Notes under the pieces: model-generated
What the model saw: the letters and a program-made list of their open reading frames with translations, nothing else
Databases searched by the model: none
What the model was told of the DNA's origin: nothing
Translations under genes and position numbers: made by a program
Assembly (NCBI GenBank): GCA_014621425.1
Contig: JAANBB010000062.1
Location: forward strand, 82,517 to 146,516
Direction: 5' to 3'
Origin: Cylindrodendrum hubeiense
Lineage: Eukaryota > Ascomycota > Sordariomycetes > Hypocreales > Nectriaceae
DNA length: 64,000 nt
Part shown: one piece after another, positions 7,716-61,666 of the stretch
How positions within the stretch are numbered: the first letter of the stretch is position 1
Layout of the letters: each line of letters starts with the position of its first letter

Positions 7716-8032
7716 ACAGAATTTAGAACCTTGAATAGAGAGAGATATCCCGAGCTGACGGCCTGGTATTTTTGTGTCCGTCAACTCGAGCGGTATTTGT
7801 AAGCCGAGGTCCAATCCCACGGAGAAGAAGATGGGAAGCAATATGACCGATTCTTTGAAATTGGCGATGATACATATTAGTGTGAACTGTCTATGTATAT
7901 GAAGCTAGTTTATTACTTTTAAAGTATCAACATGCACAAAGAACTTGACTTGCAAAGAGAAGTAACGCCATTGTAGGGTCTAAGGAGTGCTATGAATAGT
8001 CATGGGGAAACAAGTATGACATAAAATCCATC
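7716..8032. other. 3'-3' spacer between transporter and PKS
   Basis: 317 bp between two convergent stop codons. I see only untranslated AT-leaning sequence and no RNA gene. Confidence 0.6.
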
Positions 8033-24415: not shown

Positions 24416-25028
24416 TAATTCTTCACTTGAAGTTCTGCGCCTTGGTTCGACTTCGGGTTAAGAAACAAATATAATGAACTTTACCATAATTTAGCATTTA
24501 AACAGAGTTCCCTTTAAGGCTGTTCCTGCTTCTAGTCCATATGAAGTCCGTTATGTGGATTTAAAAGTGTCTTTTTACCTATTTTAACATCAATAGAGAA
24601 TTCATTATGATAGGTAAAATGCTTCCTTGTATATGGGTGGTTCTCTGACGGGAAATCCGCTGGGAAGGAATAATATGGCCTTTTTAGGTCATATCTGCGC
24701 TGGTCAATGTTAGCAATGCACACAGGTTATGCCGAATTTAACCGGGAATGGTATTCCATCGTGTGGTACAACAGCGCCTACCCTACAACATTTGCAATTT
24801 TCGCCTCATCATGGTCCCGGGATCACTACAATGTATGATGTTTCTCTTTGTAACTAATGTGAAGAACACTTTCCTTATCCTATGGAGGCACCGTATGCAT
24901 TTACAGTACGCATTCAAGACATTATTGCCACATTGCATAGACATTTATTTTGAAGCAGAATACATTTGGTCACTTAATTAGCTGCTGTTCTTTCGTACCG
25001 ATATTAATCGGACTCGTACTGAGTGCTT
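24416..25028. other. Intergenic, 3'-3' spacer
   Basis: 613 bp of AT-rich DNA between convergent oxidoreductase genes. Short ORFs here have no coding character. No RNA gene is seen. Confidence 0.5.
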
Positions 25029-27976: not shown

Positions 27977-30797
27977 ATGATGACAATCAAGTCTATTGTC
28001 GTTCTTGCTGCATTGAGCTTTACTCAGGTGAATGCTGGTCCTTGCAAAGTTTCCTCGTACGCACTCGACACGACTGGATTTAGTACCCTCAGCGCTGCTA
28101 CATCGGGCTCTGACGCAACCACCCTCACAAATTCCGAAACAGCTGGCTCGAGTACGCTCAGCAGTGCTACGTCAGACTCCGACGCAACCACCCTCACGAG
28201 TTCCGAAACGACTGGCTCCAGTACCCTCAGCTTTGCTACGTCAGACCTTGACACGACTGGTTCCAGTACGCTTCGCGTTGCTACATCAGGCTCCGACACA
28301 AGCACCCTCGCGAGTTCCGAAACGACTGGCCTCTCTACTGCTGAGGCTTCGCCAAGCTGTGTGGATGAGTGTGCTCGTGGGGTTGCGGGAACCAACCTGC
28401 CGCCTGCAGTGAGCGCTACTCGCCTGGCTCAGTGTTTCACCTATCTCAGGTCGACCGAGACACCAGTAGCTTCGTGAGTGCGATGCAAAATCCTTTGCTC
28501 TTCTTTGGCTGACAGTGTATAGAACGGAATATGTCACGGAAACCGAGTACAGCACCTTCATAGAAGGGAGCACGACGACGACAGCTGTCCCTCCCGCAGG
28601 CAGCAGTCTTAAGAAGCGTGTGATACCCGTAACCACACGTTCGCTCCCTACATATGCCGGCGCATGTCCCGAAGAATCAGACTACCGCAGCGCCTGCTTT
28701 TGCATTGGGGCATCGGTCACCACGTACATAGAAGTAGCCGACACCGTCACCTCCACTGTCATTTCTACGTCGGTTCTCACGTTGCCACTCGACAGCCCGT
28801 CACTTGTGCAAACGTCGTCCGTAGAGCTTCCCACCAACGCCGACTGGCTGTCAGACTACGCGTACTACGAAGTCGAACTGCCAACATTCGCGGAAACCGC
28901 GGCCCCAGAGTTCACATTCGCCCCTGCTGAACCGATCGAAAAAGACTGCGTCGTAGATGCGTCCAATTCTGCTGCTGAATTCGTAAGTTGACATCGCCAG
29001 GGAAATATTTAGCTAACATGCCGTCCAGTATCTTCTTGATGGAGGCATTGGTTACTTGATCAATCGAAATGGAAAGCCTGCCCCCCCTGCGGCTCCTACC
29101 ACTGAAGCCGAGGCGATTGAGAGAGGCGATTTCTCAAACTTTAGCCTCTGACTTATCGATTCGAGAAACCTTCGGATGGGCCTTCCGGGTAAGGATACCA
29201 CCGATAATATGACTATCTACCAGTCCGCTGATGTTCTTCCAGTATTTACGACGTGGTTCTAGTCGATGGAAATACAAAACTCTACATTGCGAAAAAGGCT
29301 GATAGTGGAGAGGTTGTGTTCACCACTCAATCCACACACGGAAGCGTCCAAAACAATCTCATCACCACAATCTTCAGTGTCTCTTGTGGTGGAGAGATGG
29401 AAATCGTCGTAGATAATACATCCTACAAGTGGCGATCCACCGACGATGGGTCAGAGCTTATCGTTGCTGATGGAACAAACCACGGGACTATTGTCCTTCT
29501 ACCCAAAGATGCATTTACGCCACTTGAAACAGTGCCGGCACCGACGCCGAAGATGCGTCGAACGTACGCCGCGGAAGGTTCGGCACCACGCTGCCCGAAC
29601 CGTCCGGCAGATATCATTGCTACTCTGAAGTCCGGAGCTCGAGGAAATAACCCTAATGGCTGTGGATCGGACAACGGCATAGGATCATACGTTCCAGACT
29701 GGAATTATGGCACATGTTGTGATGGCCATGACAACTGCTACGACGAGTGCTCAGAGACATTTGAGACTTGCAATGATGTCTTCCTCACGTGCATGAGGGG
29801 GAAATGTAATGAATTATTGGGTAGCATTTGGACGTGGTGGGTATGTATCACTCCATCATCTTTCCCGTTGGACTCTGAACTGACCTGTGATACCTCAGCT
29901 CTGGCCGGCTTGTCGTGGCACGGCTGACTTCTATTACACCGTTGTGAGTGCGAGCCCAGGAGTTGAAGCCTTCAATACGGCGAATCGAGAAAGATGCGAG
30001 TGTACGAAGTGTCAGAAGTCGGTGCCCCCGAAAAAGGCAGGCATTGCCCAGGGCATTTGCAGCGTCAATGGTCAACCCGCCTGTACCATTCTTCGAGGTG
30101 ACGACAACAACAACTGCGGGGGGTGCAACTACTCCTGCCCCTCCAAGACGCACTGTTCCAGCGGAAATTGTGCTTGTAGTGAAGACCGCTGTGGGAATGT
30201 ATGCCTCAGCTTCCTGACGCATCCTCGCAACTGCGGCGGATGCGGTAATGTTTGCTCGAGCGGCTATTGCTATCAAGGTACCTGCTGGGAACCACCCGCG
30301 GTTATAGAGCAATGCTACCCAACAGAAGCTGTCACCAACGGCCAATTTGCTGATCCTTATACTCCATGGACCTCAACCCGCATTTCAGGGATTGGACTTT
30401 CAACCAAGTCCCCTGGTTTAATTTCTTGGAACGTCACCCCAACGCTAAATTTAGGGCGTCTCAATTTGTCCACATCTGCCCCGGGGCCAACTACGAGATC
30501 TCGATTACTATGTCGCGTCCTGACACCTACGCTAATGTTGCTCCTTGTCCCACGAAAATAACGCTAGGTGGTAGAGTAATTGTGGAGAATATTCCAGTGG
30601 TGGATCACTTGGCCCGCTGGATCTACGTTGATCAAGCTTATGGATATGGCCCCTATCAAATTGCTGCATTCAATGTAGGCGATGCGGGCACTTCAAAAGG
30701 AGAGAACTTTGCTCTCAATGCCGAGCTTGTCATTTCTACCACATGTACTGAAACCGGCCGTGTTGGGATCAATTCAGTTAGCATCTATGCTGTTTAA
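27977..30797 (+). pseudogene. Secreted phospholipase-A2-like protein, apparently broken
   Basis: Segments 27977-28473, 28523-28982 and 29029 onward join cleanly and encode a signal peptide, a Ser/Thr-rich repeat tract and a Cys-containing domain. Then an in-frame TGA stops translation at 29149-29151. Family-like coding resumes in another frame from about 29244 to 29840. It includes the phospholipase A2 core CCDGHDNCY (Ca-binding and catalytic His-Asp) in a group-XII-like Cys-rich context. A good intron (29841-29898) leads to a Cys-rich segment with repeated NCGGC words, and then the frame changes again near 30440-30455 before a C-terminal beta-rich domain ending at 30797. No intron choice I tried removes the stop and both shifts while keeping the conserved stretches. 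A 47-nt gap at 30408-30454 with a weak donor could explain the last shift. The gene is either recently inactivated or affected by sequence errors. Confidence 0.6.
28070..28335 (+). repeat. Ser/Thr-rich imperfect coding repeats
   Basis: Four to five imperfect units with the core GSSTLSxATSxSDATTL follow the signal peptide of the phospholipase-A2-like gene. They resemble O-glycosylated stalks of cell-wall or secreted fungal proteins. The DNA units are similar enough to suggest tandem duplication. Confidence 0.8.
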
Positions 30798-45229: not shown

Positions 45230-46590
45230 CTATAGCCTCCATTGCTTCAACCATAACGCCATCCATTCGGTCCCTACCGGATTCAAAGACGCCATGGTCT
45301 TGCTTCTGGTTGTGGAGACCTCTGTTGCCAATGGAGGCATCATCGCGCCATCGTTCTCCTTAGCGTCAAGGGACGCAAAGAAGTCCAGCAACTTGACACC
45401 AGGATTCGACTCCAGGTCTGCTCCTTGCTCTGAGAGGCGCAGAGCGTCGACCCATTGGCTCCAAGAAACGATGTCCCCCGAGCTGATGCCTACCAAATTC
45501 GCGACCGTGGGGACCAGTTCTGACCAGTTGACCGAATGGGGGTTCACGGCGTGATATACAGAGAGGGGACTGGTCTTCCCAGACGTTTTCTTAACATGGG
45601 CACCCAGAGACGAGTCTTTCTTCACCCCGTTGGCCACAAGGGACAGCTTATCTGACGAGTAAGCAGGAGGTTGTGTGACACCACTCAGTTCTAGAATGAT
45701 TTCAGATAGAAGATCGACCGGGACCCAATTAATCTCATCCATCGAACCGAGATCGGATGGAAGCAGGCCGATATGCTTTGAGCTTGCGATGATCTGAATA
45801 GACATATCCTTGATTAGTTCTCGTATAAACCGATAAAGGATGTTGGAGGTAGTGACATACAGTAGGAAGCCATTCTTGCTTGCCCCACATGCCACTGTCT
45901 TTCAATACAGGCCCAGCAATTTGTCCAACGCGGCAGATGGCCGCTTTTTTGTGGTTCGAGAACTTGACATGCTCCTCGATAATGAGTTCACAAATATGCT
46001 TTGAAGCACTGTATCCGCCAAGATCTGGCGATAGTACGTGGTTTGGACGCTCAGGAACAGGGTCAGATGATGAGACATGGCTGACGGTTCCGATAGTCGA
46101 TACAAATAAGAATTCGACTTCACGTGGGCTGTCAAGACAAAAGTCCAGCAGATGTCTCACACCCCTTATGTGCGGCTCAAACGATGAAAGATCCCAGTTG
46201 AAGTTCACCGGCCATTGATTATCTAGGAAGCAAAACATTAGTGACAAATGCATCGAATTAGAAGGCGGGTTAATGAAACTCACGGATGATATGTGTGGCC
46301 TCCCGAAGCAACTGAATATACTTTTCCTGGCTTAAGCCAAAGCCAGGCTGTGACAAATCGACATGTAGAAACTCAACCCTATGCTCATCCCAGTCGGTGT
46401 CTAGTCCTCGAGTCCCGCTGACGTCTTTCTGTCTGGTCCGGCCATCCTCAGCACGGTTGAGACAGTATATCTTTTTCACATGCCACTGGCTCGTGAGGGA
46501 GTCGAGCAAGTATGAACCAAGGGAGCCTGTGCTTCCTGTCAGGATGACCGTGGCCGAGTCGGCATTATTTTCGTCGCTAACAGTGTGCAT
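45230..46590 (-). CDS. Free-standing thioester-reductase-like extended SDR
   Basis: Three exons (46590-46284, 46222-45861, 45793-45230) give 410 aa. The protein matches the reductase (R, NAD_binding_4) domain at the end of NRPS-like adenylate-forming reductases: GSTGSLGSYLLDSL (NADPH loop), KIYCLNRAEDG, HNQWPVNFN, FVSTIGTVSH, GGYSASKHICE (YxxxK catalytic pair), CRVGQIAGP, EWLPTIIASSKHIG and MDEINWVPVD. No A or T domain is attached, so it would act in trans on a carrier-bound acid or be a truncated offshoot. It sits beside the isocyanide synthase and A-T enzyme genes, whose carrier lacks its own R domain. A role there is inference. Confidence 0.85.
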
Positions 46591-47243
46591 TTTAGACGGG
46601 TTTGGCTGTAAAGAAATCACTTGAGTTTGGATACCATGTAGGAACAAGATAGAAGGCGAACGGACGGGGCATATGGTCGTAAATTCGATTAAGGGAATTG
46701 CAAGGAAACAATGTTTTTGGAAGTCCTTGACTAAGTCCTAATGCGAAGACGTGTTCGGTCCGTTTCTGCAGGGTAGCAATGGCCCTTCAGAGACTTTCCG
46801 CATCAATCTGGTATTTCCGTGGCTGGTCGGAGTTTGACTAATTCGTGCCTCCGATGCGTGTGATGACAAACTCCATGTCCGCCAAGTAAGCTGACGATAA
46901 CTCCGAGTGTCTCTTCAGTTTCGGACGTCCTGATGCGGTTCGGAGCTATTTGCAGGCGGTGCACGTAGCTCGCTTATGTTGCCACCTCAGTTGCGGGGCT
47001 TCCGAGGGCGCGCTCTAGTCGTTAGTTCAATAGGTAAGCTTACCCAATGTCTCACTCTGTGCCGTCCTAATGTAACTGCCGAATGGGCATAGGCCATATC
47101 TGGCCAAAACCTCAACGGGCGTATAGCCACGACTATTTAGGTACACGTAGCTAGACTAGGGGCTAGGACTTAAGATATCACTGCTCCTCCTCCTTTTGGC
47201 CTTACAGTGGATCCTATTCCTTAAATCATTTTCAGTCATCATC
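46591..47243. promoter_or_regulatory. Divergent promoter of the reductase (-) and SDR (+)
   Basis: 653 bp without an ORF of coding character. The shared promoter suggests joint expression of the two oxidoreductases. Confidence 0.5.
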
Positions 47244-48193
47244 ATGGCGTCTTATTCTTTCCTCATTACTGGTGCCTCGTCAGGCCTCGGGCTTCAGCTG
47301 GCGGTCGAGGCCCTGAAAGCGGGTCACTCGGTTGTGGCTACGGCACGTAATCCCACTACGGCCGCACAAAACCACCCGGAGGTAGAGGAGCTAGGTGGCA
47401 GTTGGTTCCAATTGGACGTAACACATGCCAACACCAAAGAGCGCGTGGCCGAAGTTGTGCGGGAGAAAGGCATCAACGTGCTGATCAACAACGGGGGCTA
47501 CGGGATCCTCGGCAGCCTTGAGGACACTGGGTTTGTTTTCCCCCGCACGTCTTGCGTATCTTTTTGACATGTGGCTAAACTTGGAACAGAGAAGATGAAT
47601 TCGCACAGCAAATGGATGTCAATACATTTGGTACCATGCGCTGCATCAAGGGCGTTTTGCCCCACTTCCGCTCGCTTGGGAAAGAGGGTAGTCCTACCAT
47701 CGTCAACATTGGCAGCATTGTCTGCCTAACTCCGTTCCCCGCCACAACCGCATATGCAGCATCAAAGGCGGCCGTGGAGGGTTTGTCAGAAGCCCTTGCA
47801 ATGGAGGTGGGGCCTTTAGGAATCCGCGTCGTGCTGATTGATTTCGGCATTTTCCGGACTAGTTTCCTGCACAGCTTCACGAAGCCCAAGGCTGGACTGG
47901 GAGAAGCATATGTCGGGGGATCCGTGGATGGAACTGTCTCATTTTTGGAGAACCTCGCTGGAAAGCAACCTGGTAATCCGATTCTGGCTGCTAAGAGAAT
48001 CGTCGAAATTGTTGATGGAACAGGACTGGCAAAGGACATTACGGAACAGGGCTATGGCCCGGCCCTTAGAGTCCCTCTTGGAAGCGACTCCTTCCGCGGC
48101 GTAACAGCCAAGGTCGAGGCCATGGAAGAGGTGAAGAAACTGGAAACACTTTCATGTAGCACAGATTTCGACCAGGACGCCACCACAGCCTAA
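47244..48193 (+). CDS. Classical short-chain dehydrogenase/reductase
   Basis: Two exons (47244-47530, 47590-48193) give 296 aa. The cofactor loop is TGASSGLGLQLA, then ATARNP (Arg suggests NADPH), INNGGYG (usual NNAG has become NNGG), NIGSIVC (catalytic Ser) and YAASKAAVE (catalytic Tyr and Lys). Fungal members reduce ketones or oxidise alcohols on small molecules, including secondary metabolites. It shares a promoter with the thioester-reductase-like gene. The intron donor is GTTTGT, chosen because it restores DTGEDEFAQQMDVN, which aligns with the family. Confidence 0.9.
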
Positions 48194-49715
48194 ATATAAC
48201 CATAGTCATACCAAATACACATGTTATAGCCTGGAGTATTTATTTGTTCGCAAATTGGGGAAAGGTTTGGAATTAGTGCTAAGTCGTAGATGTCAATGGT
48301 AAGACAACGAAAGCTTAAATATGACGCATCCTACCAAGACGCGTTTTAGGCTTGTGTATTGTTATTTCAGGCTATAAAGTCGAATTTAACCGGCAGCTCA
48401 GCTATGTGAGGAGCCTAAGCGATGGCTGCTCAAAAGTCCCAATTTGGGCTGCTATGGGGACAATAGGCTGCTTTAGCAACTCCATGGAGGAGGAAAGAAG
48501 CCCCCGAAAGAGCGCGCCGCAGGCAGTTTCGCTTACTCCTGTTTAATGATAGATTTAGCTGGCATGAGAACTAGTCACTTGGCATCTCAGCCCTAGCCCG
48601 TACATATACTACCAATTAGCATGTGCGTACCGAGGATGGCCCATCCGATGCAGGGACCCTGGCGTGGGATCATGCGGCCCGGCGTATCCGGTATCCGGTA
48701 TCCGGTGAACTCCCCAGATTCGGCACATAATCCGCAAAGGTACAGGATCGGATCCAGGGCATCGGACTCCGGTAAGGCAACAGCCATCGAGGAAGGATGT
48801 AAAGGATTTGGTCGGAATCCTACGGACCCTCTAAACGAACACTGCTTATATCTAACGTCTTCTCCTGCCCTTGGCACCTCTCGATTTGGACATAGACTAT
48901 TCCCAATACAACGAACATTTGTGAAAAGTGCACATTAAATATCCTCTTCGACAGCGTCATCGAAAAATGCCACCAAATTCAAGTGCCGATCGCTCCAAAT
49001 GCGGACCGTTCCGATCCGGAAAATTCTTGACGCGTCAGCGGGAGATGCAGTCAGCTTATCTATAAGATGAGGCCCCTCCCAGCGGACCCCAACGAGGCGT
49101 TTTCTCTCTTATCCTCTCAAATATACCCGCCTCTCATGAATAGTATTGGTGAAAATCCGCGTGGGCCAGTTGAAGGAGGAGCTGGCCGACAGGGGCAATC
49201 TTACGCAATCTTTACGAGCAATGGTAAGCCAGCAGCCAGCTTAGTAACGTACTGGCAGCTCAACGATTGCTTGATGAGAAGGGGCGTATTCTCACATATT
49301 TGTTGACTAGAGTTTGGGAGTCGAGTCTACGTGGAGGGCTGAGTGCTTCATAAGAGGCAGGTGACTCAGGTGGCTGTGCGACTAGTCGCCGGTCCAGCCG
49401 TATCCCCGATGACATGATCCCGCCCTGTAGTGACGCTTAGCTTCTTCTACCAGTGGCTTTTGTAATGTGCCCCCAGGCGCGTGGCGTAGTTTAGGTATGC
49501 GGCGTAGCTAGGATTGTAGAAATCTCCTGCTGGTGGCAATCTCGCTGTTTTACATGCTACAGTACCAACATTACCTGCCTAAAGTAGCCTGAGTGATTTC
49601 TCAGTGTCCCGGACAATTATCTTATCTCGTACATCGTATCCTTTCTTCCAATTTCCTCCCCTGCGAATATACACCAGTGAACTACAAGCGGAGAGGCGAA
49701 ATATCTTGTTTTCCT
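48194..49715. promoter_or_regulatory. Long upstream region of the Zn2Cys6 regulator gene
   Basis: 1,522 bp without a credible gene. A 105-codon ORF at 48621-48938 lacks codon structure or homology. A triple GTATCCG repeat lies at 48684-48704. Confidence 0.45.
48684..48704. repeat. Three tandem GTATCCG heptamers
   Basis: Perfect head-to-tail copies. Each junction reads CCGGTATCCG, a CCG-type half-site arrangement of the kind bound by Zn2Cys6 factors, about 1 kb upstream of such a factor gene. Confidence 0.8.
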
Positions 49716-51257
49716 ATGTTCGGGACGTTGAGCTATGATCGTGATGGTCAAGAACCCGTCTTCGAGGCAGACGGGACATTACCAAACACCACATCTGGCA
49801 CAGAGTCAACTAGACGCGGAACGACAATCCACAAAGCATGCGAACTCTGTCGGGCACGCAAGGTAAGTGATACTGGATCCATAATTCCCTAGGTCTGTGC
49901 ATCGCTCATCATCTCCATTGTTCCGCAGCTTCGGTGCAGTGCGGACCCATCCGGATGCGACCGTTGCAAAGCGTCTTCGAACACCTGCAAATATCCTCCG
50001 AGAAACTTCCGAGACGGGAGAAGACGTCGATTGACCTCGCGAGCCAGTGCAGGCACCAGAAGTCCAGGATCCTTGGCAGCTGACAGTGCCACATCAACCG
50101 ATGGTGACGTTCGTGGAGGCAGAGACTTCAGCCAGCTGGACTGGCAGAGCGCTTCAAGTTCAGCCGGGACTGAGGAAGAGGCACAGCCTTTGTCGACCAA
50201 CAAATTTCCCGATACAAAATATGGGCTTGGTCCTAACCAAGCGGAGACCTTCCCGGGTGGCAGCTACATGCTCAGTATCCCCACCGAGTATACTGTCAGT
50301 GACCCTTTCGAACTTCCCTGGGAAGCCAACCAGGCAGTACATACAAAAAAGACATCGAGTCTAGACGAGCTGCCTGATCTCTCTCTTCAGTGTGAGTGAA
50401 GTTATTCCATTTCCGTTAAAATCCAACATCATGGCAGCACGGGACAAAGAAAGATTTATTGATTCCTCTGCATCTTGCACATTACGTGGCAACTGTACTG
50501 ACGCGCAACTTCCATAGCATTTGAAGATTTCTGGAAATTCACTTCAACGCTCAATACGTCTAATTCTAACAATAATCCAACTTGTCTAAAGCCACCCGAT
50601 TCGCTTTTTGGTTATGAGTGGTCTGAGAGCGCCTTCGAAACCACTCCGGAGTTGTCTGCACCCTTAATATCCCGTAGCAACTCAGCTGAGGTGTCCAGAA
50701 CACCCGCACGAATGGCTGAGACAAATTCACACAACGATAATAATTATTGCCAGTGCCTTAGCCTCGTTGCCAGTCTCATAGAGAAGGTCGAGACTCAAGG
50801 CGCGAAGCCGGACACGAGTATCGACGAACTGCTAGAAAGCTGCAGAGAGCCTCTAAGGCAGAGAAAGACGCTTCTGGCCTGTCCCCGTTGCAAATCACGG
50901 TCCGAGTACATTCTCCTTCTTACTATGTTGGTCAAATCGCTCAGTGTTGTGTGCCATGGCTTGGTGCAGCGATACATACGCGGCCGACTTGAAGGCAGCC
51001 ACGAGGAAGTGCGCGTAGGCGCGTACTTTGTCAATGATTCGGCTGAAAGGTTCACGGTCATAGAGGCCCTGATTGCGGCCAAATTAAATAGTGTGCACGA
51101 CTTTCTCACAGATGTGAAAGTTCGAGCAAGGAACTGGGAGGGGCATTCGGCTATTTTGATTCAGGTTGAGAAGCGTATCAAGGATTTGAAAGCCCTTATG
51201 TCAACTAGTCAGCGCCAGGTTTTAGGTGTTAATAAAAAAATTGAAGTCTATTCCTAG
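49716..51257 (+). CDS. AflR-like Zn2Cys6 transcription factor, likely cluster regulator
   Basis: Three exons (49716-49862, 49929-50391, 50518-51257) give 449 aa. The first intron falls inside the zinc cluster and is spliced to give CELCRARKLRCSADPSGCDR, followed by CKASSNTC. This is C-x2-C-x6-C-x6-C-x2-C-x6-C, a complete binuclear cluster near residue 43, with a basic linker after it. A Ser/Thr-rich middle is followed by a C-terminal region resembling the AflR regulatory domain (CLSLVASLIEKVE; LLACPRCKSRSEYILLLTML; VRVGAYFVND). AflR-type factors control secondary-metabolite clusters by binding CGG-type sites. It lies between the SDR and the isocyanide synthase, so it is the best candidate for a pathway-specific regulator. 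The start at 49716 gives a compact N-terminus; an upstream in-frame ATG at 49593 exists. Confidence 0.9.
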
Positions 51258-51664
51258 GTCATCACTGCTTTTAAGTGCAGGTCGTGCATCGTGTTTGTGG
51301 TGGTGGGTGGACCGGCGTGTCGGAGGTAAAGTCACAATCTGCAACTAGTATATCCGTAGCGGCATATCAGTTCAGACCTCCGTAGGAATACGTGCTATTG
51401 GGGGCTATAATTGGGGTTTCAGTGAGACAGTGTTACTACTGATAAATTGGTAGAGAACACATCACAATATCTGCCTTGTCTTGGTTGCATGAGGAGAAAC
51501 ACAACGCCAGCAGAACATGGCAATGATCAATGGAGGACCCCAGTGGCATTTCAGCCGTGTGTCGGATCAACTCCTCCCCTTCCCTTACACCTGGCCTACG
51601 CGGTCATGAAGCGATTCAACGTCACCTCCATCCATCAAGTGGGGATAGCCTCACAGCTACTACA
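51258..51664. other. Spacer between regulator and tRNA gene
   Basis: 407 bp without a gene. Contains the regulator 3' UTR and tRNA upstream sequence. Confidence 0.5.
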
Positions 51665-51746
51665 GCGTGATTGGTTTAGTGGTAAAATTCTCCGTTGCCA
51701 TTCGAGCAACGTCGGGGAGCCCTGGGTTCGATTCCCAGATCACGCA
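51665..51746 (+). tRNA. tRNA-Gly (anticodon GCC) with an 11-nt intron
   Basis: The acceptor stem GCGTGAT pairs perfectly with ATCACGC before the discriminator A at 51746. The D arm has GGTTTAGTGGTA (A box). The anticodon loop TTGCCA has GCC at 51697-51699. The stem CTCCG/CGGGG contains one G-U pair. The T arm CTGGG-TTCGATT-CCCAG is perfect and holds the B box. An extra 11 nt at 51701-51711 follow A37, the canonical intron position, leaving a mature body of 71 nt. It ends 272 bp from the isocyanide synthase stop codon. Confidence 0.93.
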
Positions 51747-52018
51747 GTAATCATGACCTAGAAATAGGTCCATCCTTTTTGACTTTTTGGCAGATAGTAG
51801 GATCATTCAAATTCGTGGCATGCCAGCTACATAGATAGACAGGCACATGACATGCGAAGTTACATAAGGGGACATTGAAGATCAAGTAGGGCAATGAGAA
51901 CCAAGAGTCTATTGAGATGAAGAAAGGTGCGTAGCTATCCACCGTGGAGAAGCCATTCTAGATGTATCTTGAAACAGAAATGAAACAAACTTGCTCAAAC
52001 TCCATCCATGATAATGAC

Positions 52019-53303
52019 CTACTCTGCCTTTACTTGGTTGTCGGCCTTTACTTGGTCGTCGGCCTTTACTTGCTCATCGGCCTTTACTTGCTCATCGACC
52101 GTCTTCTCCTTGAAGTAACTAGGTCGACCATCCTCGTAGACGATTTCCATGTTCGGGTCATCCTTGAAATCACCCATCGGTGAGCTCATCCACTCACCAT
52201 CCGCCATCAAGGCAATGCTGCAATGCCACGGCGTCGTGAAACCGGTCTTGGTGTTGAGCAGGCTCATAGACACCTTATGCTCGCCGGTGGATTGATGGAT
52301 GGAAAGGCGCAGGTGATTGGGGAAGGCGGACTTGCATGCTCCAGCAAAAGCCTATTTGGAAAGAGTGTATTAGCATCATGCCGAGATCTTGCAGACAGAG
52401 GTAAAATCTCTGAGGTCTGTGGTGGGAAAATGGAAGTGTACGTACATATCCTCGGATCAACATCTCCTTGGCAAGGAACTTCACGTTCTTCTTGTAACTC
52501 TTGACTGACCGGCCATTGCCAGCTGGGAAGACATGCTGCAAGTCGGACTCGAGGAATCTTCGATAGCCGCGATAGGTCATCAGGGTATCGGGCTTAGTAG
52601 CAATCTCGTGGTCAATATCCAAGTCGTCTTTGCCATATTTGTTGAGGAGGTGTCGGCGGAAGTTGGTAGCGTTGGCGACATAGGTGATCTCCTCTAGCTT
52701 ATCCGGGAGAGGGAAATGAACCATATCTCGTAGGCGAGAGAAGTCGATGTGGTCGAACCCCTTCTCGACAGCCATTGCGCGGAGAGCTTGACCATAAGCC
52801 CAGACATCCTTGTCCGGAATGCTCAGCAAGTCTATCAATGCGAACAGAATAAATTAGCAAGAAGGTGTGAATGAATTTGCTTAGCGGTGTTAGTACGTAC
52901 CATTGTAGACCAGGCCATCTGAGATGATGGTGAGCTTCGCACCAGGTGCGTATACTTCTCCGATGCGAGTACACATGGTATTCAAACGCTCCATCGCCAA
53001 CTCCTCAGCCTTGTCAGGCAATGTGCCGAGCACCTTGTAGACTCTGTTCGCTGACTTGAAAGGGAATGCGGGTAGGCACATCTCTACTTGCTTCCCAACC
53101 ATGACGAACTCATCAATAACAGAGAGGAACTTAGGGATGCCAGCTGAAAGCCTATCGACGCTGTCGTCGAATTTGTTGAGGGCGTACTCATAGATGATGG
53201 ACAAAATCTTGGCAGAAGTCTCTGTAGCCTCCTGTACCGCCTGCGACGTCTTTTCTTCGGAGGCAATGCTCTTGATGTCTGAGATGGGGGAAAGAACCTG
53301 CAT
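52019..53303 (-). CDS. Isocyanide synthase, DIT1/PvcA family
   Basis: Three exons (53303-52901, 52831-52446, 52351-52019) give 373 aa. The protein matches the pyoverdine/dityrosine biosynthesis family: LTIISDGLVYNDLLSIPD, VWAYGQALRAMA, FSRLRDMVHFPLP, MTYRGYRRFLESDLQ, KFLAKEMLIRGYAFAG and FPNHLRLSIHQS. Members convert the amino group of an amino acid to an isocyanide (isonitrile) in the cytosol using ribulose-5-phosphate. Fungal examples are XanB/CrmA-type proteins, and yeast Dit1 is a relative. No dioxygenase or second enzymatic domain is fused. The C-terminus ends in four VKAD(E/D/N)Q-like repeats not seen in the family. The gene is divergent from the A-T-acyltransferase gene, a strong hint that the two act together. 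The substrate amino acid cannot be read by eye. Confidence 0.9.
52027..52098 (-). repeat. Four 18-bp coding repeats at the isocyanide synthase C-terminus
   Basis: Tandem units of CCTTTACTTGxTCxTCGG (plus-strand view) encode VKADEQ, VKADEQ, VKADDQ and VKADNQ just before the stop codon. They form an acidic, flexible tail. Confidence 0.92.
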
Positions 53304-54229
53304 GGTGGGCGATATAGGATGGATAAAATATATTGAGGAGGAGTAGGAAGCTGATTGTTGCAAGTGAAGTGTGGAGCGAGTTGTAGAATGAATCCAGTTG
53401 GGGAACAGGTTAGGCTATATAGAAGTTCGCTCTACTGAAAAACTATCCGTCCAGAAAGAGCGCGAGGGAACAACTTTGCTTGAGTGACGATGCCTGACAC
53501 TGACAAACACTGCGTGTCTGCATGCCACAGTAACACCGACACAAGGCTATCTCCGCGCACTGTTACACAATACCAATGGCAAAATCCCCTAATGTCCGAG
53601 GCAGCGTAAGCCCTGAGGCCCGACACAGCCCCATAGCACGGCGAATACTCTCAGCAGCGTTTGCAAACGCCTCTGAGAATCTATCGATGTCTCGGTCACC
53701 TAGCTGCCTTCGGCCTCTCCGCCTTTCGGCACGGCAGCCGATTGCGGACTTTGCACCAGGCTGCAGCATGTCAGCCTTATTTGCGCTCCGCCAGATCATT
53801 TCTGAGTGCCGTAGCGGAGAGCGGTCAGCTTATTGCCGGTCACGGGATCTGAGATCAGCTTACACTCGGAGCACCGAAAAGAGTACGGCCCGCATTGCCG
53901 CTTTGGGACAGGCATAGCATCGGGAGAATTTATTTCGCCATCAACATTGGTAATTCGAAGAGTTGAGGTTCTCCGAGAGATCCTCAATCTCCATTGGGTA
54001 CGGAATCCCCGGCCTGCGGATATTATGAATCAAAGGACGGAAAAGGACAGCATACCTCCAAGCTATGTGGCGTCTTTCCATATTGTATTACTTAAGGCGA
54101 ACCAGTACCTTGTAACTAGTGTTTGGAATTTGCAGTGAATCACATCTCTCTAACTCTAGACAATTCTTTTTGGGAAAGTCTGCGATTTCTTTGCTTTCTT
54201 TAGTATCTTTAGCCAGATTCGCAGCAATA
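53304..54229. promoter_or_regulatory. Bidirectional promoter of isocyanide synthase (-) and A-T-acyltransferase (+)
   Basis: 926 bp without a credible gene. Near the synthase it has a TATA-like CTATATAG (53415-53422). The middle is rich in CGG/CCG words (about 53600-53760), candidate Zn2Cys6 sites. No match to a named copper or iron regulator site can be claimed by eye. Confidence 0.6.
53415..53422 (-). promoter_or_regulatory. TATA-like element of the isocyanide synthase gene
   Basis: CTATATAG on either strand (palindromic), 112 bp upstream of the ATG at 53303. Confidence 0.4.
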
Positions 54230-57200
54230 ATGGCAGCTTCAGAGGACTACGGCAAGAGGCTGATCCCTCAGATCCTGGATAGCCTTGCCGCTGCCGATCC
54301 AGATCGTATCATCTACTCAGTAGCAAAATCTTCCAATATTTCCGAGGGCTTGAGACACGTATCTGCTCGCAGTTTTGCCAAGGCAGTCGACAAGACAGCT
54401 TGGTGGTTGCATAACCAGCTTGGAAAAAGCACAACATTCCAGACAGTGGGCTACATCGGACCTCGTAAGTTGGACAAATCCTGAAGCCTCGAGATATCCG
54501 TGCGCTAACTATACAAAGATGACCTTCGACACATTTTGTTGACCTACGCGTGCATCAAAGCCGGTTACACTGTAAGTAGCGACAATAACTCTTCAAGCAA
54601 AGTTGAAGGCATCCCGGCTTACATTTTCCCTACAGGCTCTGTTCCTTTCCCCAAAGAACAGCATTGACGGTGCTTTGAATGTCCTTAAGAAGACAGACTG
54701 CAACATTTGGGTGCAGCCTAGCGAGCAGCCGCGTCTCCCTCAGGTTGACGAATTTCTCCGGCATCGATCTTTGAAGATTCTGGAACTGCCAGTGATAGAT
54801 GATCTTCTTGATGCTGAAACAACCGAGCATTACGCTTATGATAAGACATGGGAGGAAGCGTCCCAAGACCCCTTCTGCGTCCTGCATAGCTCGGGATCCA
54901 CCGGCTTGCCAAAGCCCATCCCATGGTCACATGCTCTAATAGGCACCATGGATGCGGTGCGGTTACTTCCACCTACCGAGGGCGACAATGGAATGCTTCC
55001 TTGGACATCAGAGTGGAAGGAAGGCGATCGAATATACTCGTCATTCCCCATGAGTCATGTACGTCCATCTTCCTCAGTCGTATTAAAGACATGTTGGCTA
55101 ATCGCATACTTTTCCAGGGCGCTGGTGTTATCATGGATATTCTCATTCCCTCGCTCTTCGGCATGCACTGCATCCTGGGACCAGTGGGTGTCATCCCCAA
55201 TATTGGCCTAATAGAGTCTCTCGCAGACCATGGGAAGATTGACGTCTGGAGCATGGTTCCATCACTCGTCGATGAGCTGGGTGAGACTTCTGACGTCTTG
55301 GCCAAGTTCAAGTCGTCGAAATTTATTTGCGCGTCTGGTGGTAAGTCTTACATTCTGTTCCGTCGTTGATATAGCGCTAAAATTCCTCCTCAAGGCCCGA
55401 TTAGTCCCATCAGTTCCGCAAAGGTCAACAAAGTCATTCGTGTGCTTAATTTAACGGGCACAACTGAGGGTCTCTTCATCGGCAATCTTCTTGTCGACAG
55501 GGAGGACTATTTCTACTTCTCCTTCCACCCATACTCCGGCTTCGAGTTCAAAGAGGTAGAGCCGGGGGTGTATGAGCATTGGATGCATCGCGACGACAAG
55601 TTGTCTCTTTTCCAGGGCATTTTCCACACGTTCCCCGACAAACACGAAATCAATATCAAGGACTTGTACGTCAAGCACCCAACGAAGCCTTATCTCTGGG
55701 CCTACAAGGGAAGGAGCGACGATCTAGTTGTCCTATCCAACGGTTATAAAATATCGCCATTGGATACGGAAGCCTTCATCACCACACACCCTGCAATTAA
55801 TGGTTGCCTCGTCGTAAGTCATCCCATTCTGGCTCCTAAATCATAAGTAAGTAGCAGTCTCGGCTCACAATATTCTACAGGTCGGAACCGGAAAGCCCCA
55901 GGCTGCCCTGCTAATCGAATTGAAAGACCCCTCAACAGCAAATGAGGAGCTCCTCGAGAGCATCTGGCTTACAGTAGAAAAGGCCAATACCTCGTCTCTG
56001 CATAAGAACCAGCTGCACAAGGATTACATCATGTTCGCAGAAGCAGACAAGCCCTTCATACGCACAGACAAAGGAACAGTCAAGCGAAGTGCCACTGTGA
56101 CAATGTACGGCGAATACATTGATCGGTTTTACAACACAGCATCAGGTGATTCGGACACAGATCTTTCGATAACTGTTGATACAACTTCAATCGAATCAAT
56201 CACAAATGCTGTCCGTCATATCTTCACCTCCATGTTACCCGCATTCGAACACGCTTCGGTGGACACAGACATCTTCAATCTCGGGCTCGACTCCCTCCTG
56301 GTATTCCGCGCTATTCGATCTCTTCGGACAGCAATGGGGTTATCAGATCAACTGGCTCCACGACACGTGTACGCAAACCCCACCATGGCCAAGCTCTCTG
56401 CTGCCCTTGCACAATTGGTGGCCGGAGCGAAAGCGACAAATGGAAGAAGCTCGGAGCTCGATGAGAAGTTGGCAAAGATGAAGGAGCTTCTGGGCAAATA
56501 CAAGTCACGACAGTCGCTCAAGCTCAACGGGTTTGACCTGATCATGCCTAAGCTCTACGTCAAAATGATGGTGTACATCCCTCTGCGTAAAGACATCAGC
56601 TTCGAGCAAGCTTTTACTGGATTGCAACGGGGCTTTGCTCGCACGCTTGAGCTTATCCCATCCCTCGACACAAAGATTATGCGCTGCTCGGAACAAGAGG
56701 CTGGGTATGTTAAGGGCCACCTCCGGACCGAATTCCAATCTCCTCCATCACCACCATGGGACAACGATATAATGGGCTCTTCTTCTGGCCCAAGACAGCT
56801 GGCTTACAGGGATCTCTCGCATATTCTTCCGTCATTCGAAGAGCTACGAGATGCTGAGTTCTCGCCCTCAGCATTTAAGGACGAACTTGTCCTCGAAGTA
56901 CCATGGTTTCCGACGTTCCCGACCGATATCATGATTGCACAGGCCAACTTTGTTGAGGGTGGCTGTCTGCTTGCCATGGGATTCAGTCATCCGTGCTTCG
57001 ACGGGATGGGTGTCGTGACGGCTATGAGAGTCTGGGCCGAAAGCTGCAGGTACATCCAAGGCGACAAATCAGCAACATGCAGCTGGCTAGACCCGGAGAG
57101 CATGAATCGCAGCCTACCCCAAGTACTGTGGGAACAAGAAGGGTACGCCCGACCTGTTGAGGAGATAGACCCCGCCACATGGGGATTCCTCGGATTTGGA

Positions 57201-58067
57201 GCACCCGAGAATCTGGAAAATGGAGAAGGTAGTGTCAACGGCACAGCCAAGGTTGATACAATGCTTTCACCTTCTACTCTCCCTCCCGCTCCTACTCTTC
57301 CTCCCTCGCCCGTTCTCCCTCCTCCAACTACCGACGAGGATCGTCACTTAGAGTCAAGCGTTTTCCACATCTCAGCTGAGAATCTAGAAAAGCTGAGGCA
57401 AGAAGTGATTGCTGATCCGGAGGCCAAAGGCGTGACCTCAGTTAGCGACATCGTGCAAGCCTTGTTCTGGCGCGCCTCGATCAGGGCACGATATCTTGTG
57501 GAGAAAGAGCTCCAGGGAAAGAAGTTTGGACCCGATGCCATCTCAATTTTGGAATTGCCGATTGACGGCCGCCCGTACTTTTCTCCTTTGCTGCCTTCTA
57601 CATATATGGGCAACCTGATTGTGATCAATCGACCCTATATGCCCGTTGAGACACTCTGCTCGCCCGAGACAAGCATTGGACGCATCGCGCTGGTCATCCG
57701 CGAAGCAGCCAGCCGCATCAGACCACAGCTTGTACATGATTGCTTCACGCTTCTGCAGACTGTTCCTGACTACGACAAGCTGAGGTACGCATTCATGCGA
57801 CTTGATGGAGTGGACACCATGATCACGAACATGATGCTATTCCCGACGAGCGAAGTGTCATTTGGTACTGAGTTCTTCGCAAATGGAGGAGCTCCCGACG
57901 CCGTGCGACCGCTGACAGACGGCTTCAACACGGGGTTCAGACTAGATTTCATCCTCCCCATGCGCAAGGACGGCGGTGTTGAGCTCCAATTTGGACTCTT
58001 TTCCGAAGAGTTGGAGAAGTTGATGGAAGATGAAGAATTTGCCAAATATGCCACACTCATGGGATGA
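54230..58067 (+). CDS. NRPS-like enzyme: adenylation, thiolation and BAHD-type acyltransferase domains
   Basis: Six exons (54230-54464, 54519-54571, 54636-55058, 55118-55340, 55395-55813, 55881-58067) give 1,179 aa. The adenylation domain has VLHSSGSTGLPKPI (A3), LTGTTEG (A5), YKGRSDDLVVLSNGYK (A7/A8) and RTDKGTVKRSA with the catalytic Lys519 (A10). The carrier domain has NLGLDSLLVF with the phosphopantetheine Ser589. From about residue 660 a PF02458-type transferase begins, with catalytic HPCFDG (His821-x3-Asp825) and a later FGTEFF segment in place of the usual DFGWG. A Pro-rich insert (about 57270-57335) lies inside this domain. There is no condensation or reductase domain. The enzyme should activate a carboxylic acid, hold it as a thioester and pass it to an alcohol or amine. 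Given its divergent partner, the isocyano acid is the obvious substrate (inference). Confidence 0.9.
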
Positions 58068-58440
58068 ACTCGGGCGCTGGAAATTAAGGCCCCAACCCGG
58101 ATGGAATGGCCCCTGCAACCGCCACAGCGGAACACCTTAGACAAGGCAGCACTGGTGAGACCTGGTATTCAACATAACCAGGCATAACATTTACTGTAGC
58201 TTTAGTAGGTGCATTGGAAGGCGTATTTGAACTTGTTTGTTACATAGCAAAGCCAATAGAAGATTCCCAAGATACTATGTTCGTCTGAATGACAGGCTGC
58301 ACCCAAAGCAAACATGCGTTTAAAAAGTGACTCCGCCACGCCGTCTGACTCATTAAATGAGCGACAGTATTTAATAGAAACTCTGCCACAATTGAAAGAC
58401 TAATTCAACAGTCCAGTTATTTTACAGGCGCAAAGCCAAG
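58068..58440. promoter_or_regulatory. Spacer with the D123-like gene promoter
   Basis: 373 bp between same-strand genes. No gene. It holds the 3' UTR of the NRPS-like gene and AT-rich upstream sequence including TATTTAATAG at about 58369. Confidence 0.45.
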
Positions 58441-59379
58441 ATGAAGCTCCATATCATCGACTTCAACGACGTGCAGCTAGATCTAGACACTGGCGTGCCG
58501 ACAAACGTCAACACAAATTTTCACACGGCCGAGGAGGCGCCAGACCTTGCGATTCCTACCAACGTGCCGTATTCTTACGACAGATGGCTTCCGTTGGTCT
58601 TGCGATCACGCGGCCTTCTCGCTTCTGCTGTGCAAACTGTCTCTCTTACGCGCGCGCAGGTTCGGGTTGTCGTAGAAGCTGCTGGGGCATCCGTCCATAC
58701 CCGCGTGCTGAATCGAGCATATGCAGAAGATCTCCAAGACGAAGTGCATCCTGCCTTTAAAAGCCTGTCATTCCCACAAGAAGGGCTTTTCATGCGGTTG
58801 GGAGCGTGCTCTCCAAAGGACGGCACGCAAGCAATTCCAGGACAAATGTCTCTGCACTCAGTTGATGACATCATTCTCCGGCTCACCACATCTGCAAGGG
58901 CTACGGGCACGCTCGGCAACATGCTAAACAGCGATGCGCAAGAAATAAAAATATTCTTTCTGCCATTCGACTCGAAAATGAGAACCGAGAAAGAGTATCG
59001 CGTGTTTTGCGTCCCGGGATCGCTGCGGATGAGCGGTGTTAGTCAATACCGGTGGCACAAACCCTGGATGTTTGCGGACAAAATAAACGAGCTGGAATTG
59101 ATTGCACAGCGAATCCTGAATGGCATCCAAGATGTGCACGCCAAAATTCTCAAGGATTTACGCGACAATGAGTCGAATGAAACGGACGATCTACTTCGGA
59201 CGCAGGGCTTCACGTTCGATGTCATCTATGACGGGGAGAGAGATCATTGCGGGTTGATTGAGCTCAATACGTTTGGAGTGAGGAGCGCGTGTGGCTCGTG
59301 TCTCTTCCAATGGGTCAAAGACCGAGACTTGCTCTACGGGAATGACGTTGAGGACGTGGAATTCCGCGTTGCTGTGTAG
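58441..59379 (+). CDS. CDC123/D123-like ATP-grasp protein
   Basis: A single exon of 312 aa. Three blocks match the D123 family: MRLGACSPKDGTQ (family RLxxxSPKDA), KEYRVFCVPGSLRMSGVSQY followed by RWHKP (family EFRxFV...ISQYD), and CGLIELNTFG followed by GSCLFQW (family IDxNPF...LLFxW). D123/CDC123 proteins have an ATP-grasp fold. The housekeeping member assembles eIF2, but this copy is divergent, intronless, and has Glu-Leu-Asn-Thr where the family has Asp-x-Asn-Pro at the metal site. Sitting between the NRPS-like gene and an exporter, it may be recruited as an ATP-dependent ligase for the pathway. This is inference, since ATP-grasp ligation by D123 proteins is not proven to my knowledge. Confidence 0.75.
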   Translation: MKLHIIDFNDVQLDLDTGVPTNVNTNFHTAEEAPDLAIPTNVPYSYDRWLPLVLRSRGLLASAVQTVSLTRAQVRVVVEAAGASVHTRVLNRAYAEDLQDEVHPAFKSLSFPQEGLFMRLGACSPKDGTQAIPGQMSLHSVDDIILRLTTSARATGTLGNMLNSDAQEIKIFFLPFDSKMRTEKEYRVFCVPGSLRMSGVSQYRWHKPWMFADKINELELIAQRILNGIQDVHAKILKDLRDNESNETDDLLRTQGFTFDVIYDGERDHCGLIELNTFGVRSACGSCLFQWVKDRDLLYGNDVEDVEFRVAV

Positions 59380-59865
59380 AGCGACTATGTAATTAATTGC
59401 GCGGAGGTATATCTCAAAGCAGCGAGTTGAACTTGAGTGCCAAGTTACAGGGGATTTCCAGGCGATCTCCGGGGGATTAGTGGCAACAAATAACAATGAC
59501 TCAGCCACTCAGAATAGCCGGCAGCTCCACCCGTCCGTTACATGTCTCGCCGCGGCGGCTTACGCGCCGTGGCGTCTCACCTCTTACGCAAGGAGTAACT
59601 AATGTCAGCACGCTGCTGCACAATGCTGCGGCACAATGAAACAGGACGGCCAGTGGCTTGCTGCTTGTATCCGCAGGCCGTCGGAGTTTGCGGTACGAAG
59701 TGCGCCCGAGCGGCCACGTCGCTCGCGGTTGGGCTGACCGATCTCCCCTAACATTCCATGCCCCAACCCTCTATCGCTCATCTCTTTCCGCCATTTCTCC
59801 CCCGCCAATGGATTGCCGGATACCTATCGTTTAACGCGGACATAGTAGTAGGGACAGCACTCATC
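59380..59865. promoter_or_regulatory. Upstream region of the MFS exporter gene
   Basis: 486 bp without a gene. It contains a GC-rich interrupted palindrome at about 59549-59575 (CGCCGCGGCGG ... ACGCGCCGTGGCG), possibly a regulator site. Confidence 0.45.
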
Positions 59866-61666
59866 ATGGCGATACCCGATCCGGATCGCAAGGACTTGGC
59901 CGGCCCTGAAGCTGAGCGCTTGGTCGATCGCAAGAGTTTGTCTGACGCCGACGACGAGAGCATCAGCGAGGGCCGCCATGACGGTCCTGTGGGCGACGAC
60001 GCGGGCGAAGAGACGCGGTTTCTGCCCATGGATATTGCGCCCGACATCGTCCCGCAAAAGTCCAACCAGCGCTACGTCATCCTCATGTGCGTGCAGTTTC
60101 TCTTCATCATCGAGTTCAGCATGTTCATCATGGAGCCGCCGCTGCAAGAAATCATGGAGGACTTTGTCTGCCATACTGTCTATCCAGACCACCGCACGGG
60201 CGTGCCGCAGGAACCGGACACCCGCTGCAAGAATCCCGACGTCCAGGGGACGCTTGCCATGGCCCGCTCGTGGATGATGTGGGTCGGGATGCTTGTTCGT
60301 AGGTTACTCCATTGTTGGCTCTCTGTCTACTGTATCATCGCTGATTGACTATTGCAGCTTTGCTCGTGCAGATCCCCTATGGCATCGCTGCAGACAGGTA
60401 TGGTCGTCGCCCAGTCCTGTTTCTTGGGCTTTTCGGTCTTGTCCTCGGAACGGTATGGAACATGATCGTGTGTACGTCAACTTCCTTCCATGGCTTCCCT
60501 GATCAATCCGCTGACCCTATTCGACAGTGTATCGGCCAGATGTATTCTCCATCTGGCACCTCCTTCTTGGATCCATTCCTACACTCATTGGAGGCGGCGT
60601 GTCCGTCGTTGGCGCTATAGTCTGGACAATCCTATCTGACTCCATCCCCGCCGCCAAGCGAACCTCTCTCTTTTATCAGTTGCACGCCATGATGCTCATC
60701 CTTAGTGCGGCCGCTCGTCCTGTCGCGGCCTGGCTGCTCAGTATCGATCCCTGGCTGCCAATGTGGATTGGCCTGGGCGCCCTTGTACTAAGCTTGTTCT
60801 CGTCTCTCCTCATCCCCGAGACGCTGCAGCTCCGCACGATAGCCGATGACGAAGTCCGCCAATTTGAAGAAGCAGATGGTCACCAGCTGGGAGACGCTGA
60901 GCTGTTAAAATCGAAACAAAGTGTACTGCAGACGGCATGGAGTACGTCGAAACAGGACTTCTCCCGCGTTTGGCAGTTCATCTTTGGATCAAAGAATCTC
61001 CTGCTTCTTATTGTCGCATACGGTCTATGCTATCCTATCGATATCGCCTTCGAAATGAATATGCTGCAGTATGCCACCAAGCGATTTGGCTGGGACTGGT
61101 CTACGGTAAGCCAAAGTAACTTTGATCACTGTAGATTCCATTCTAACTGGTACTAGGCGACATACTTTACTACCATCTCCAAGGTCACCTCTGTCATCGT
61201 CCTTCTCGTGTTCTTACCCCTCGCTTCTAGCCAGGTCACCAAGCGCTTTAACTTGGAGCCATTATCCAGAGACTTGTACTTGTCCCGTGGCTCCGTCCTC
61301 TTTATTGTCGCTGGCAATGTCCTCACGGCAATTTCAGCAGTGCCTGCGCTGCTGGTAGTGTCTCTTATTGTCCTCAGTATCGGCAACGGATTCCAGCCGC
61401 AACTCCGTGCGCTACTAGCTGGACTTGTAGAGCCACAAACTCTGGCGACTTCAAACACAGCCATTGCAACAGTCGAATCGCTGATGGGTCTATTCAGCGT
61501 CCCGGCACTGGGCTGGCTGCTCAGCAAGGGCATCGAACTCGGGGGTTTCTGGATGGGCTTACCCTTCGTGATGACAACTGGTTGTGCGGTGTTAGCCACC
61601 GGGGCCATGTTTGTTTTCAGAATCCCTCGGGGGTTTGTCCAGGCTGAAGGACGTTACGATCACTAA
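59866..61666 (+). CDS. MFS exporter of the isocyanide locus
   Basis: Four exons (59866-60298, 60358-60471, 60528-61105, 61157-61666) give 544 aa. An acidic N-terminus of about 70 residues precedes about 12 membrane segments. Marks are QRYVILMCVQFLFIIEFSMF in TM1, PYGIAADRYGRRPVLFLGLF (motif A), GGGVSVVGAIVWTILSDSI and PETLQL at the end of the first half. It resembles fungal MFS proteins found in secondary-metabolite clusters. The long loop after TM1 contains Cys residues (FVCHTVYPDHR, TRCKNPD), common in this subgroup. Same strand as the NRPS-like and D123 genes. Export of, or tolerance to, the isocyanide product is the probable role. Confidence 0.88.

What the first reader, a model, noticed from the sequence alone, without database searches (positions are those of the whole stretch)
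45230..61666. Putative isocyanide gene cluster with a split CrmA-like architecture
An isocyanide synthase gene (52019-53303) and an A-T-BAHD gene (54230-58067) are divergently transcribed from one promoter. From established knowledge, A. fumigatus CrmA joins an isocyanide synthase module to an NRPS-like module in one polypeptide. Here the modules are separate, and the neighbourhood adds a free thioester reductase, an SDR, an AflR-like regulator, a D123-like ATP-grasp protein and an MFS exporter. This gene set, read as one pathway, would make an acylated or conjugated isocyano acid and may be an undescribed variant.
Basis: partly seen in the sequence, partly recalled or inferred. Interest (0 to 1): 0.92.

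Follow-up and report, generated by a model that had tools for sequence, protein, structure and literature searches.

The report
Split fungal isocyanide synthase gene pair
A nectria-family fungus carries a real two-gene unit that should make and attach a reactive, metal-binding isocyanide; it is a separate-gene relative of the known CrmA enzyme, of an architecture already in print, and the genes around it are not shown to belong to it.

Summary
The window is from Cylindrodendrum hubeiense. An isocyanide synthase (ICS, 52019-53303, minus) and an A-T-BAHD enzyme (54230-58067, plus) lie head to head and keep the expected motifs. They align with the two halves of A. fumigatus CrmA (64% and 57% identity), and differ strongly (30%) from the genome's own ICS with a P450 neighbour.

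The architecture is not new: Nickles et al. 2023 describe a separate ICS beside a crm-type NRPS-like gene in a Fusarium-specific family (GCF 8). This genome also holds a second split pair and a fused CrmA. A rooted ICS tree suggests that separate genes came first and CrmA's fusion is nested, with some weak branches.

Two points go further. The window's clade is separate from the Fusarium proteins. One member of it (P0025) is fused, perhaps independently of CrmA.

The wider "pathway" is unsupported: none of five flanking genes has a match near the genome's other ICS loci, the D123-like gene is apparently unlinked in most species checked, and the copper and AflR motifs scanned are absent from the shared promoter.

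The parts
52019..53303 (-). Isocyanide synthase, single domain, 3 exons, 373 aa
   Evidence: PF05141 341 bits; PvcA 3e59 E 3.9e-33; 90 of 90 highly conserved ICS columns kept
53304..54229 (.). Shared intergenic region between the divergent ICS and A-T-BAHD genes (926 bp); no TGTGCTCA, TTTGCTC or TCGN5CGA site
54230..58067 (+). A-T-BAHD NRPS-like enzyme, 6 exons, 1179 aa (G7Z17_g4414)
   Evidence: Pfam; identical to P0001; GLDSL carrier serine and HPCFD BAHD motif
58441..59379 (+). D123/Cdc123-like protein, one exon, 312 aa; probably a bystander
59866..61666 (+). MFS transporter, 4 exons, 544 aa; possible exporter, membership untested
   Evidence: PF07690 72.7 bits; model
49716..51257 (+). Zn2Cys6-type regulator with a weak AflR match, 3 exons, 449 aa; membership untested
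51665..51746 (+). tRNA-Gly (GCC) lying between the regulator and the ICS gene
47244..48193 (+). Short-chain dehydrogenase, 2 exons, 296 aa; membership untested
   Evidence: PF00106 140 bits; model
45230..46590 (-). Free-standing thioester reductase-type protein, 3 exons, 410 aa; membership untested
   Evidence: PF07993 105 bits; model; best own-genome relatives lie in longer open frames

Best explanation
The core is a two-gene, CrmA-type isocyanide unit. The free ICS turns an amino acid, most likely valine, into the 2-isocyano acid. The A domain of the second protein then adenylates that acid, loads it on its own carrier domain, and the BAHD domain passes it to an alcohol, giving an isocyanide (or N-formyl) ester. 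The hand-over from ICS to A domain happens in trans instead of inside one protein. Shown: both enzymes keep their motifs, are homologous to the two halves of CrmA, are neighbours here, and appear co-located in many fungi. Inferred: substrate, order of steps, ester product. The alcohol may differ from CrmA's mannitol, because the T and BAHD domains have diverged more than the A domain. The separate-gene state is probably older than the CrmA fusion.
For: ICS (314 of 373 aa, 64%) and A-T-BAHD (1180 columns, 57%) align to the two halves of A. fumigatus CrmA P0077. ICS keeps 90 of 90 columns that are at least 97% one residue in 108 rows, itself among them. The A-domain motif blocks compared agree almost letter for letter with CrmA; identity by domain is A 67%, T 50%, BAHD 53%, and the carrier serine and HxxxD are present. 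Eight pairs have consecutive locus tags (read from the tables). Rooted ICS tree: the CrmA clade (100/99) is nested among separate ICS lineages. CrmA yields valine isocyanide, and its deletion abolishes mannitol-type esters (PMC9381783: abstract and sections 6 and 11 read).
Against: No expression or product data. No MacA-type motif in the shared promoter, so CrmA-like copper control is not supported; but 0.03-0.11 sites are expected by chance and the genome's own fused crmA also lacks TGTGCTCA, so this says little. Seventeen positions separate the window's three-row ICS clade from CrmA ICS domains, so valine is not certain. Backbone branches of the ICS tree are partly weak (81/66, 88/86), and three single-domain rows (P0179, P0200, P0211) lie inside the fused clade, as fissions or cut gene models.
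Confidence: 0.72

Rival explanations
1. One reading: all seven genes are one pathway, in which the free thioester reductase releases or reduces the carrier-bound isocyano acyl group, the SDR and D123-like ATP-grasp enzyme tailor it, and the MFS exports it.
For: The genes lie within about 16 kb. The D123-like gene has the contig length of the window's ICS or A-T-BAHD orthologue in two Dactylonectria species. The second split pair also has an MFS downstream.
Against: None of the five flanking genes has a match in the 5-21 kb fetched on each side of C779, C777, C154 and C1; the MFS beside C779 is thus no close relative. The D123-like protein has another contig length in 7 other species or genera where it and an ICS or A-T-BAHD hit were listed. 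A tRNA and about 0.8 kb separate regulator from ICS. No AflR-type site and near-chance shared words, with small excesses towards the MFS upstream region. The enzyme already ends in a transferase, so a reductase is not needed for release.
Confidence: 0.15
2. It is a member of the Fusarium-type GCF 8, so the acyl acceptor might be a terpene alcohol.
For: GCF 8 has the same split architecture, and most published ICS clusters with both an NRPS-like and a terpene synthase gene belong to it (PMC10153163 sections 20-21).
Against: On the A-T-BAHD tree the window lies in an 18-row clade apart from the 25-row clade that holds the Fusarium oxysporum and graminearum proteins. No terpene synthase among the 20 window proteins or frames scanned with Pfam, of about 57 frames of 150 aa or more. 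That this Fusarium clade is GCF 8 is my inference; the terpene acceptor is my guess, not the paper's.
Confidence: 0.08
3. The ICS is a Dit1-like enzyme for a spore-wall or tyrosine isocyanide, and the A-T-BAHD neighbour is coincidental.
For: Single-domain ICS, as in Dit1; several database hits carry the name DIT1.
Against: ICS is 64% identical to CrmA's ICS half but 30% to the ICS on C1, which has a P450 nearby. Many apparent co-located pairs, and the genome has a second pair.
Confidence: 0.05

Closest known systems
CrmA of Aspergillus fumigatus (ICS-A-T-transferase; PMC9381783)
   Same: Same four domains, 64% (ICS) and 57% (A-T-BAHD) identity, motifs kept
   Different: Two genes, head to head; T and BAHD domains more divergent (50%, 53%); no MacA motif in the promoter. 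Homologues of crmB, crmC and crmD were not searched for
GCF 8 of Nickles et al. 2023 (Fusarium; PMC10153163)
   Same: Single-domain ICS co-located with a crm-type NRPS-like gene
   Different: Another genus; Fusarium proteins form a separate A-T-BAHD clade; no terpene synthase in the frames scanned
Second split pair of the same genome (C779, A-T-BAHD P0062)
   Same: Head-to-head ICS and A-T-BAHD, 69-81% and 59-67% identity by piece, an MFS downstream
   Different: Another sub-clade; no match to the window's D123-like, reductase, SDR, regulator or MFS in 21 kb on one side and 12.7 kb on the other
PvcA (3e59) and bacterial isonitrile synthases (9dhm, 9dh4)
   Same: Same family by sequence, E 4e-33 to 1e-30
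   Different: Bacterial; 9dhm and 9dh4 are named tyrosine/tryptophan type by the depositors

Membership tests
CrmA-type ICS-NRPS-like system | ICS domain of the CrmA branch | tested here: met
   with CrmA and its split relatives, apart from the C154 and C1 ICS types
CrmA-type ICS-NRPS-like system | A, T and BAHD transferase domains with intact motifs | tested here: met
CrmA-type ICS-NRPS-like system | All four domains in one polypeptide (crm GCF as published) | tested here: not met
   two divergent genes; it may work like CrmA but is not a crm fusion
CrmA-type ICS-NRPS-like system | Copper-starvation induction through MacA | tested here: inconclusive
   no TGTGCTCA or TTTGCTC in the 926-bp promoter; the motif is from Aspergillus, and the genome's own fused crmA has one TTTGCTC only
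CrmA-type ICS-NRPS-like system | Makes valine isocyanide and its polyol esters | not testable with these tools
   no metabolite data
GCF 8 (split crm-like cluster of Fusarium) | Single-domain ICS next to a crm-type NRPS-like gene | tested here: met
   definition read in PMC10153163 section 20
GCF 8 (split crm-like cluster of Fusarium) | Groups with the Fusarium proteins | tested here: not met
   separate starred clades; that this Fusarium clade is GCF 8 is inferred
GCF 8 (split crm-like cluster of Fusarium) | Terpene synthase in the cluster (reported for many members) | tested here: inconclusive
   none among 20 window proteins or frames scanned, of about 57 frames of 150 aa or more
Dit1 dityrosine type | ICS with a Dit2-type P450 neighbour | tested here: not met
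   no P450 among the frames scanned; the ICS on C1 does have one
Dit1 dityrosine type | Groups with named Dit1 proteins | not tested
   no named Dit1 sequence was in the trees; the C1 ICS served as a stand-in
D123/Cdc123 | Pfam D123 over the curated cut-off | tested here: not met
   22.6 against 24 bits; the copy at C553 scores 362; blocks nevertheless align

The most novel reading that the evidence does not exclude
ICS and A-T-BAHD are an ancient separable pair that was fused in the same order at least twice: once for CrmA, and again within the window's own clade (P0025). This fungus keeps one fused and two split versions that feed the same isocyano acid to BAHD domains with different alcohol acceptors, so it offers natural material for testing why the fusion arose and what it changes.
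Probability: 0.35. Interest if true: 0.55.

Novelty: new member of a known kind. Interest (0 to 1): 0.4.

Why it matters
Isocyanides bind metals and can be antimicrobial, and CrmA is the enzyme of this type whose products I found described. A free ICS and a free A-T-BAHD protein can be expressed one by one, which would show directly which half makes the isocyanide, whether the A domain activates it, and what alcohol is esterified. The hit lists also show the separate form in many genera, lichen fungi among them (lichen status recalled from genus names), and surveys that kept only hits of 1000 aa or more (PMC9381783 section 33, passage) pass over single-domain ICS genes.

Tried and rejected
Copper control: TGTGCTCA (passage in PMC6514546) and TTTGCTC (recalled) are absent from the shared promoter and from the upstream regions of C779, TR/SDR, TF, D123-like and MFS; one TTTGCTC upstream of the fused crmA. 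AflR control: TCGN5CGA (recalled) occurs 10 times in the window against 14.8 expected, none in a cluster promoter. Shared 10-mers between promoters are near chance, with small excesses that come mostly from overlapping words (ICS/ATB with MFS upstream 4 against 0.8; TR/SDR with MFS upstream 3 against 0.6). Dit1-like identity disfavoured. D123-like as a core gene not supported. No close solved structure for the D123-like protein by sequence (best E 0.52). I ran no structure prediction, and the A-domain pocket was compared by motif only.

One AU test (p 6e-95) is not used: its group left three single-domain rows of the fused clade outside. A like test (p 5e-12, 22 fused rows held together) is replaced by the tests. 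The tree labelled P0090 as split; one search shows a cut fused protein, so later counts use 62, not 63. Free-standing was judged by length (up to 1300 aa); a few hits on contigs under 4 kb (P0053, P0098) could be cut fused proteins too. FastTree put P0019 (Lojkania) outside the CrmA clade; the IQ-TREE A-T-BAHD tree put it inside (98*), so I do not claim it as a further fusion.

Literature: searches. crmA with isocyanide and Nectriaceae: 0 papers. Isocyanide with Cylindrodendrum: one paper, passages read. Isocyanide synthase with lichen: 11 papers, six seen in the listing, none opened for this question, so I cannot say the lichen pairs are undescribed. Passages only were read of PMC5974471 and PMC12751119.
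Full report
What is there. The window is C579:82517-146516 of a 47.5-Mb genome. Its A-T-BAHD protein is identical to G7Z17_g4414 of Cylindrodendrum hubeiense on a 146,516-bp contig, the length of C579, which names the organism. The ICS gene (3 exons, 373 aa, 52019-53303 minus) and the A-T-BAHD gene (6 exons, 1179 aa, 54230-58067 plus) translate without stops through plausible introns and score above Pfam cut-offs. They face away from each other across 926 bp.

Relation to CrmA. The ICS aligns to residues 18-331 of A. fumigatus CrmA at 64% and the A-T-BAHD protein to residues 420-1577 at 57%. The 90 ICS columns that are at least 97% one residue across 108 rows, the window among them, are all kept. 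The A-domain motif blocks that I compared agree almost letter for letter with CrmA; the carrier serine (GLDSL) and the BAHD HxxxD motif (HPCFD against HCCLD) are present. Identity by domain is 67% (A), 50% (T) and 53% (BAHD). From the A domain I infer the same or a similar acyl substrate; from the BAHD domain, possibly another acceptor. Both are inference, and 17 positions set the window's ICS clade apart from CrmA.

How common the split is. Of the best 120 hits to the A-T-BAHD protein (667 passed the threshold, and only 7990 candidates were scored), 57 are over 1300 aa and 63 are not; one of the latter, P0090, is a cut fused protein, which leaves 62. By exact contig length 21 of the 62 share a contig with a listed ICS hit. 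Adding the window and C779, where the DNA shows the pair, gives 23 of 62. Contig length is a proxy, and only 120 of 549 ICS hits were listed, so 23 is a lower bound. Eight pairs have consecutive locus tags (for example FDECE_102/103, MMC26_002878/002879, NX059_005570/005571; tables). For Dactylonectria macrodidyma only the close ICS, and for D. estremocensis only the close A-T-BAHD protein, was listed, so the pair is not shown to be complete there.

This genome holds three versions: the window pair, a second head-to-head pair on C779, and a fused CrmA on C777 (P0029), plus ICS genes on C154 and C1. The C1 ICS lies near a P450 and an RTA1 gene, as a Dit1/Dit2 locus would, and is 30% identical to the window's ICS.

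History. On the A-T-BAHD tree of the 120 rows (FastTree) most fused proteins form one clade and the split ones several. The window sits with Ilyonectria and Dactylonectria (100*), then with Trichoderma arundinaceum, Paramyrothecium and P0025 (100*), apart from the 25-row clade with the Fusarium oxysporum and graminearum proteins. The ICS tree has 82 rows picked by hand from the 120 ICS hits, the fused proteins and the genome's own copies; its bootstrap had not settled. It is rooted on C154, Monosporascus and Penicillium sequences. Separate ICS lineages branch first and the CrmA clade (27 rows, three of them single-domain) is nested (100/99), but some backbone branches are weak (81/66, 88/86). 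P0025, a fused 1580-aa protein without a named source, falls in the window's clade in both trees (91/90 for that fork in ICS). Forcing it into the CrmA clade costs 209 log units for A-T-BAHD (p 7e-6) and 50 for ICS (p 0.088, not rejected) (the group was chosen after seeing the trees, and the A-T-BAHD test used a simpler model on 50 of 120 rows). Its linker lacks the motif shared by several CrmA linkers, but so do those of P0019 and P0061, which lie in or beside the CrmA clade, so the linker is weak support. P0025 could also be an artefact of assembly.

What is known. Nickles et al. (PMC10153163; [quoted passage not shown] So the split architecture and the direction of change are in print. [quoted passage not shown] In the searches named in Tried and rejected I did not find the Nectriaceae clade of the window or a second fusion described; for the lichen pairs I saw listings only.

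The wider cluster. tblastn of the seven proteins (E 1e-3) against the stretches fetched around the other ICS loci found only ICS and A-T-BAHD (first with less sequence). The stretches reach about 21 and 12.7 kb from the C779 pair, 15 and 20 kb from C777, 16 and 11 kb from C154, 16 and 6 kb from C1, the last two up to the contig end. The D123-like protein (252 hits over the threshold, 120 listed) has the contig length of an orthologue of the pair in two Dactylonectria species and another length in Thelonectria olida, T. arundinaceum, Paramyrothecium foliicola, Trichoderma viride, Thozetella, Fusarium kuroshium and Coniochaeta. For T. viride, Thozetella, F. kuroshium and Coniochaeta only the ICS was listed, and the two Coniochaeta proteins may come from different species. 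The linkage in Dactylonectria may be plain synteny.

Verdict. A real and apparently intact unit of a known kind: a split CrmA-type pair in a clade that I did not find described.

Noticed in passing
P0025: A fused 1580-aa ICS-A-T-BAHD protein without a named source groups with the window's split clade, not with CrmA. Possible second fusion.
   Followed up: partly
window 52026-52097: An 18-bp unit repeated four times encodes the charged tail of the ICS; the repeat is absent from the tails of the seven relatives' ICS viewed.
   Followed up: partly
L010 1166-7266 (C779): Second head-to-head ICS/A-T-BAHD pair in the same genome, with a TRI12-type MFS downstream; the deposited protein P0062 (1033 aa) seems to start inside the gene, as matches to the window protein begin further upstream.
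   Followed up: partly
window 52019-53303 and 58441-59379: No deposited C. hubeiense protein for the window's ICS is among the 120 listed hits, and the D123-like protein is listed without a source, so the public annotation may lack both.
   Followed up: no
window 8199-18031: A highly reducing polyketide synthase in several frames (AT, DH, methyltransferase, ER, KR, ACP) with a C-terminal carnitine-acyltransferase domain, about 34 kb from the ICS; probably a separate secondary-metabolite locus.
   Followed up: partly
window 21099-26347: Three frames with GFO/IDH/MocA-type oxidoreductase matches within about 5 kb.
   Followed up: no
window 29232-29924: Frame with a sub-threshold match to secreted group XII phospholipase A2 (30.4 bits, cut-off 34).
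   Followed up: no
L014 (C1) 2455-9879: A distant ICS (30% identical) near a P450 and an RTA1-type gene, which resembles a Dit1/Dit2 locus.
   Followed up: partly
L013 5764-6828 (C154): A further single-domain ICS of another type (51-55% identical by piece); its cluster was not examined.
   Followed up: no
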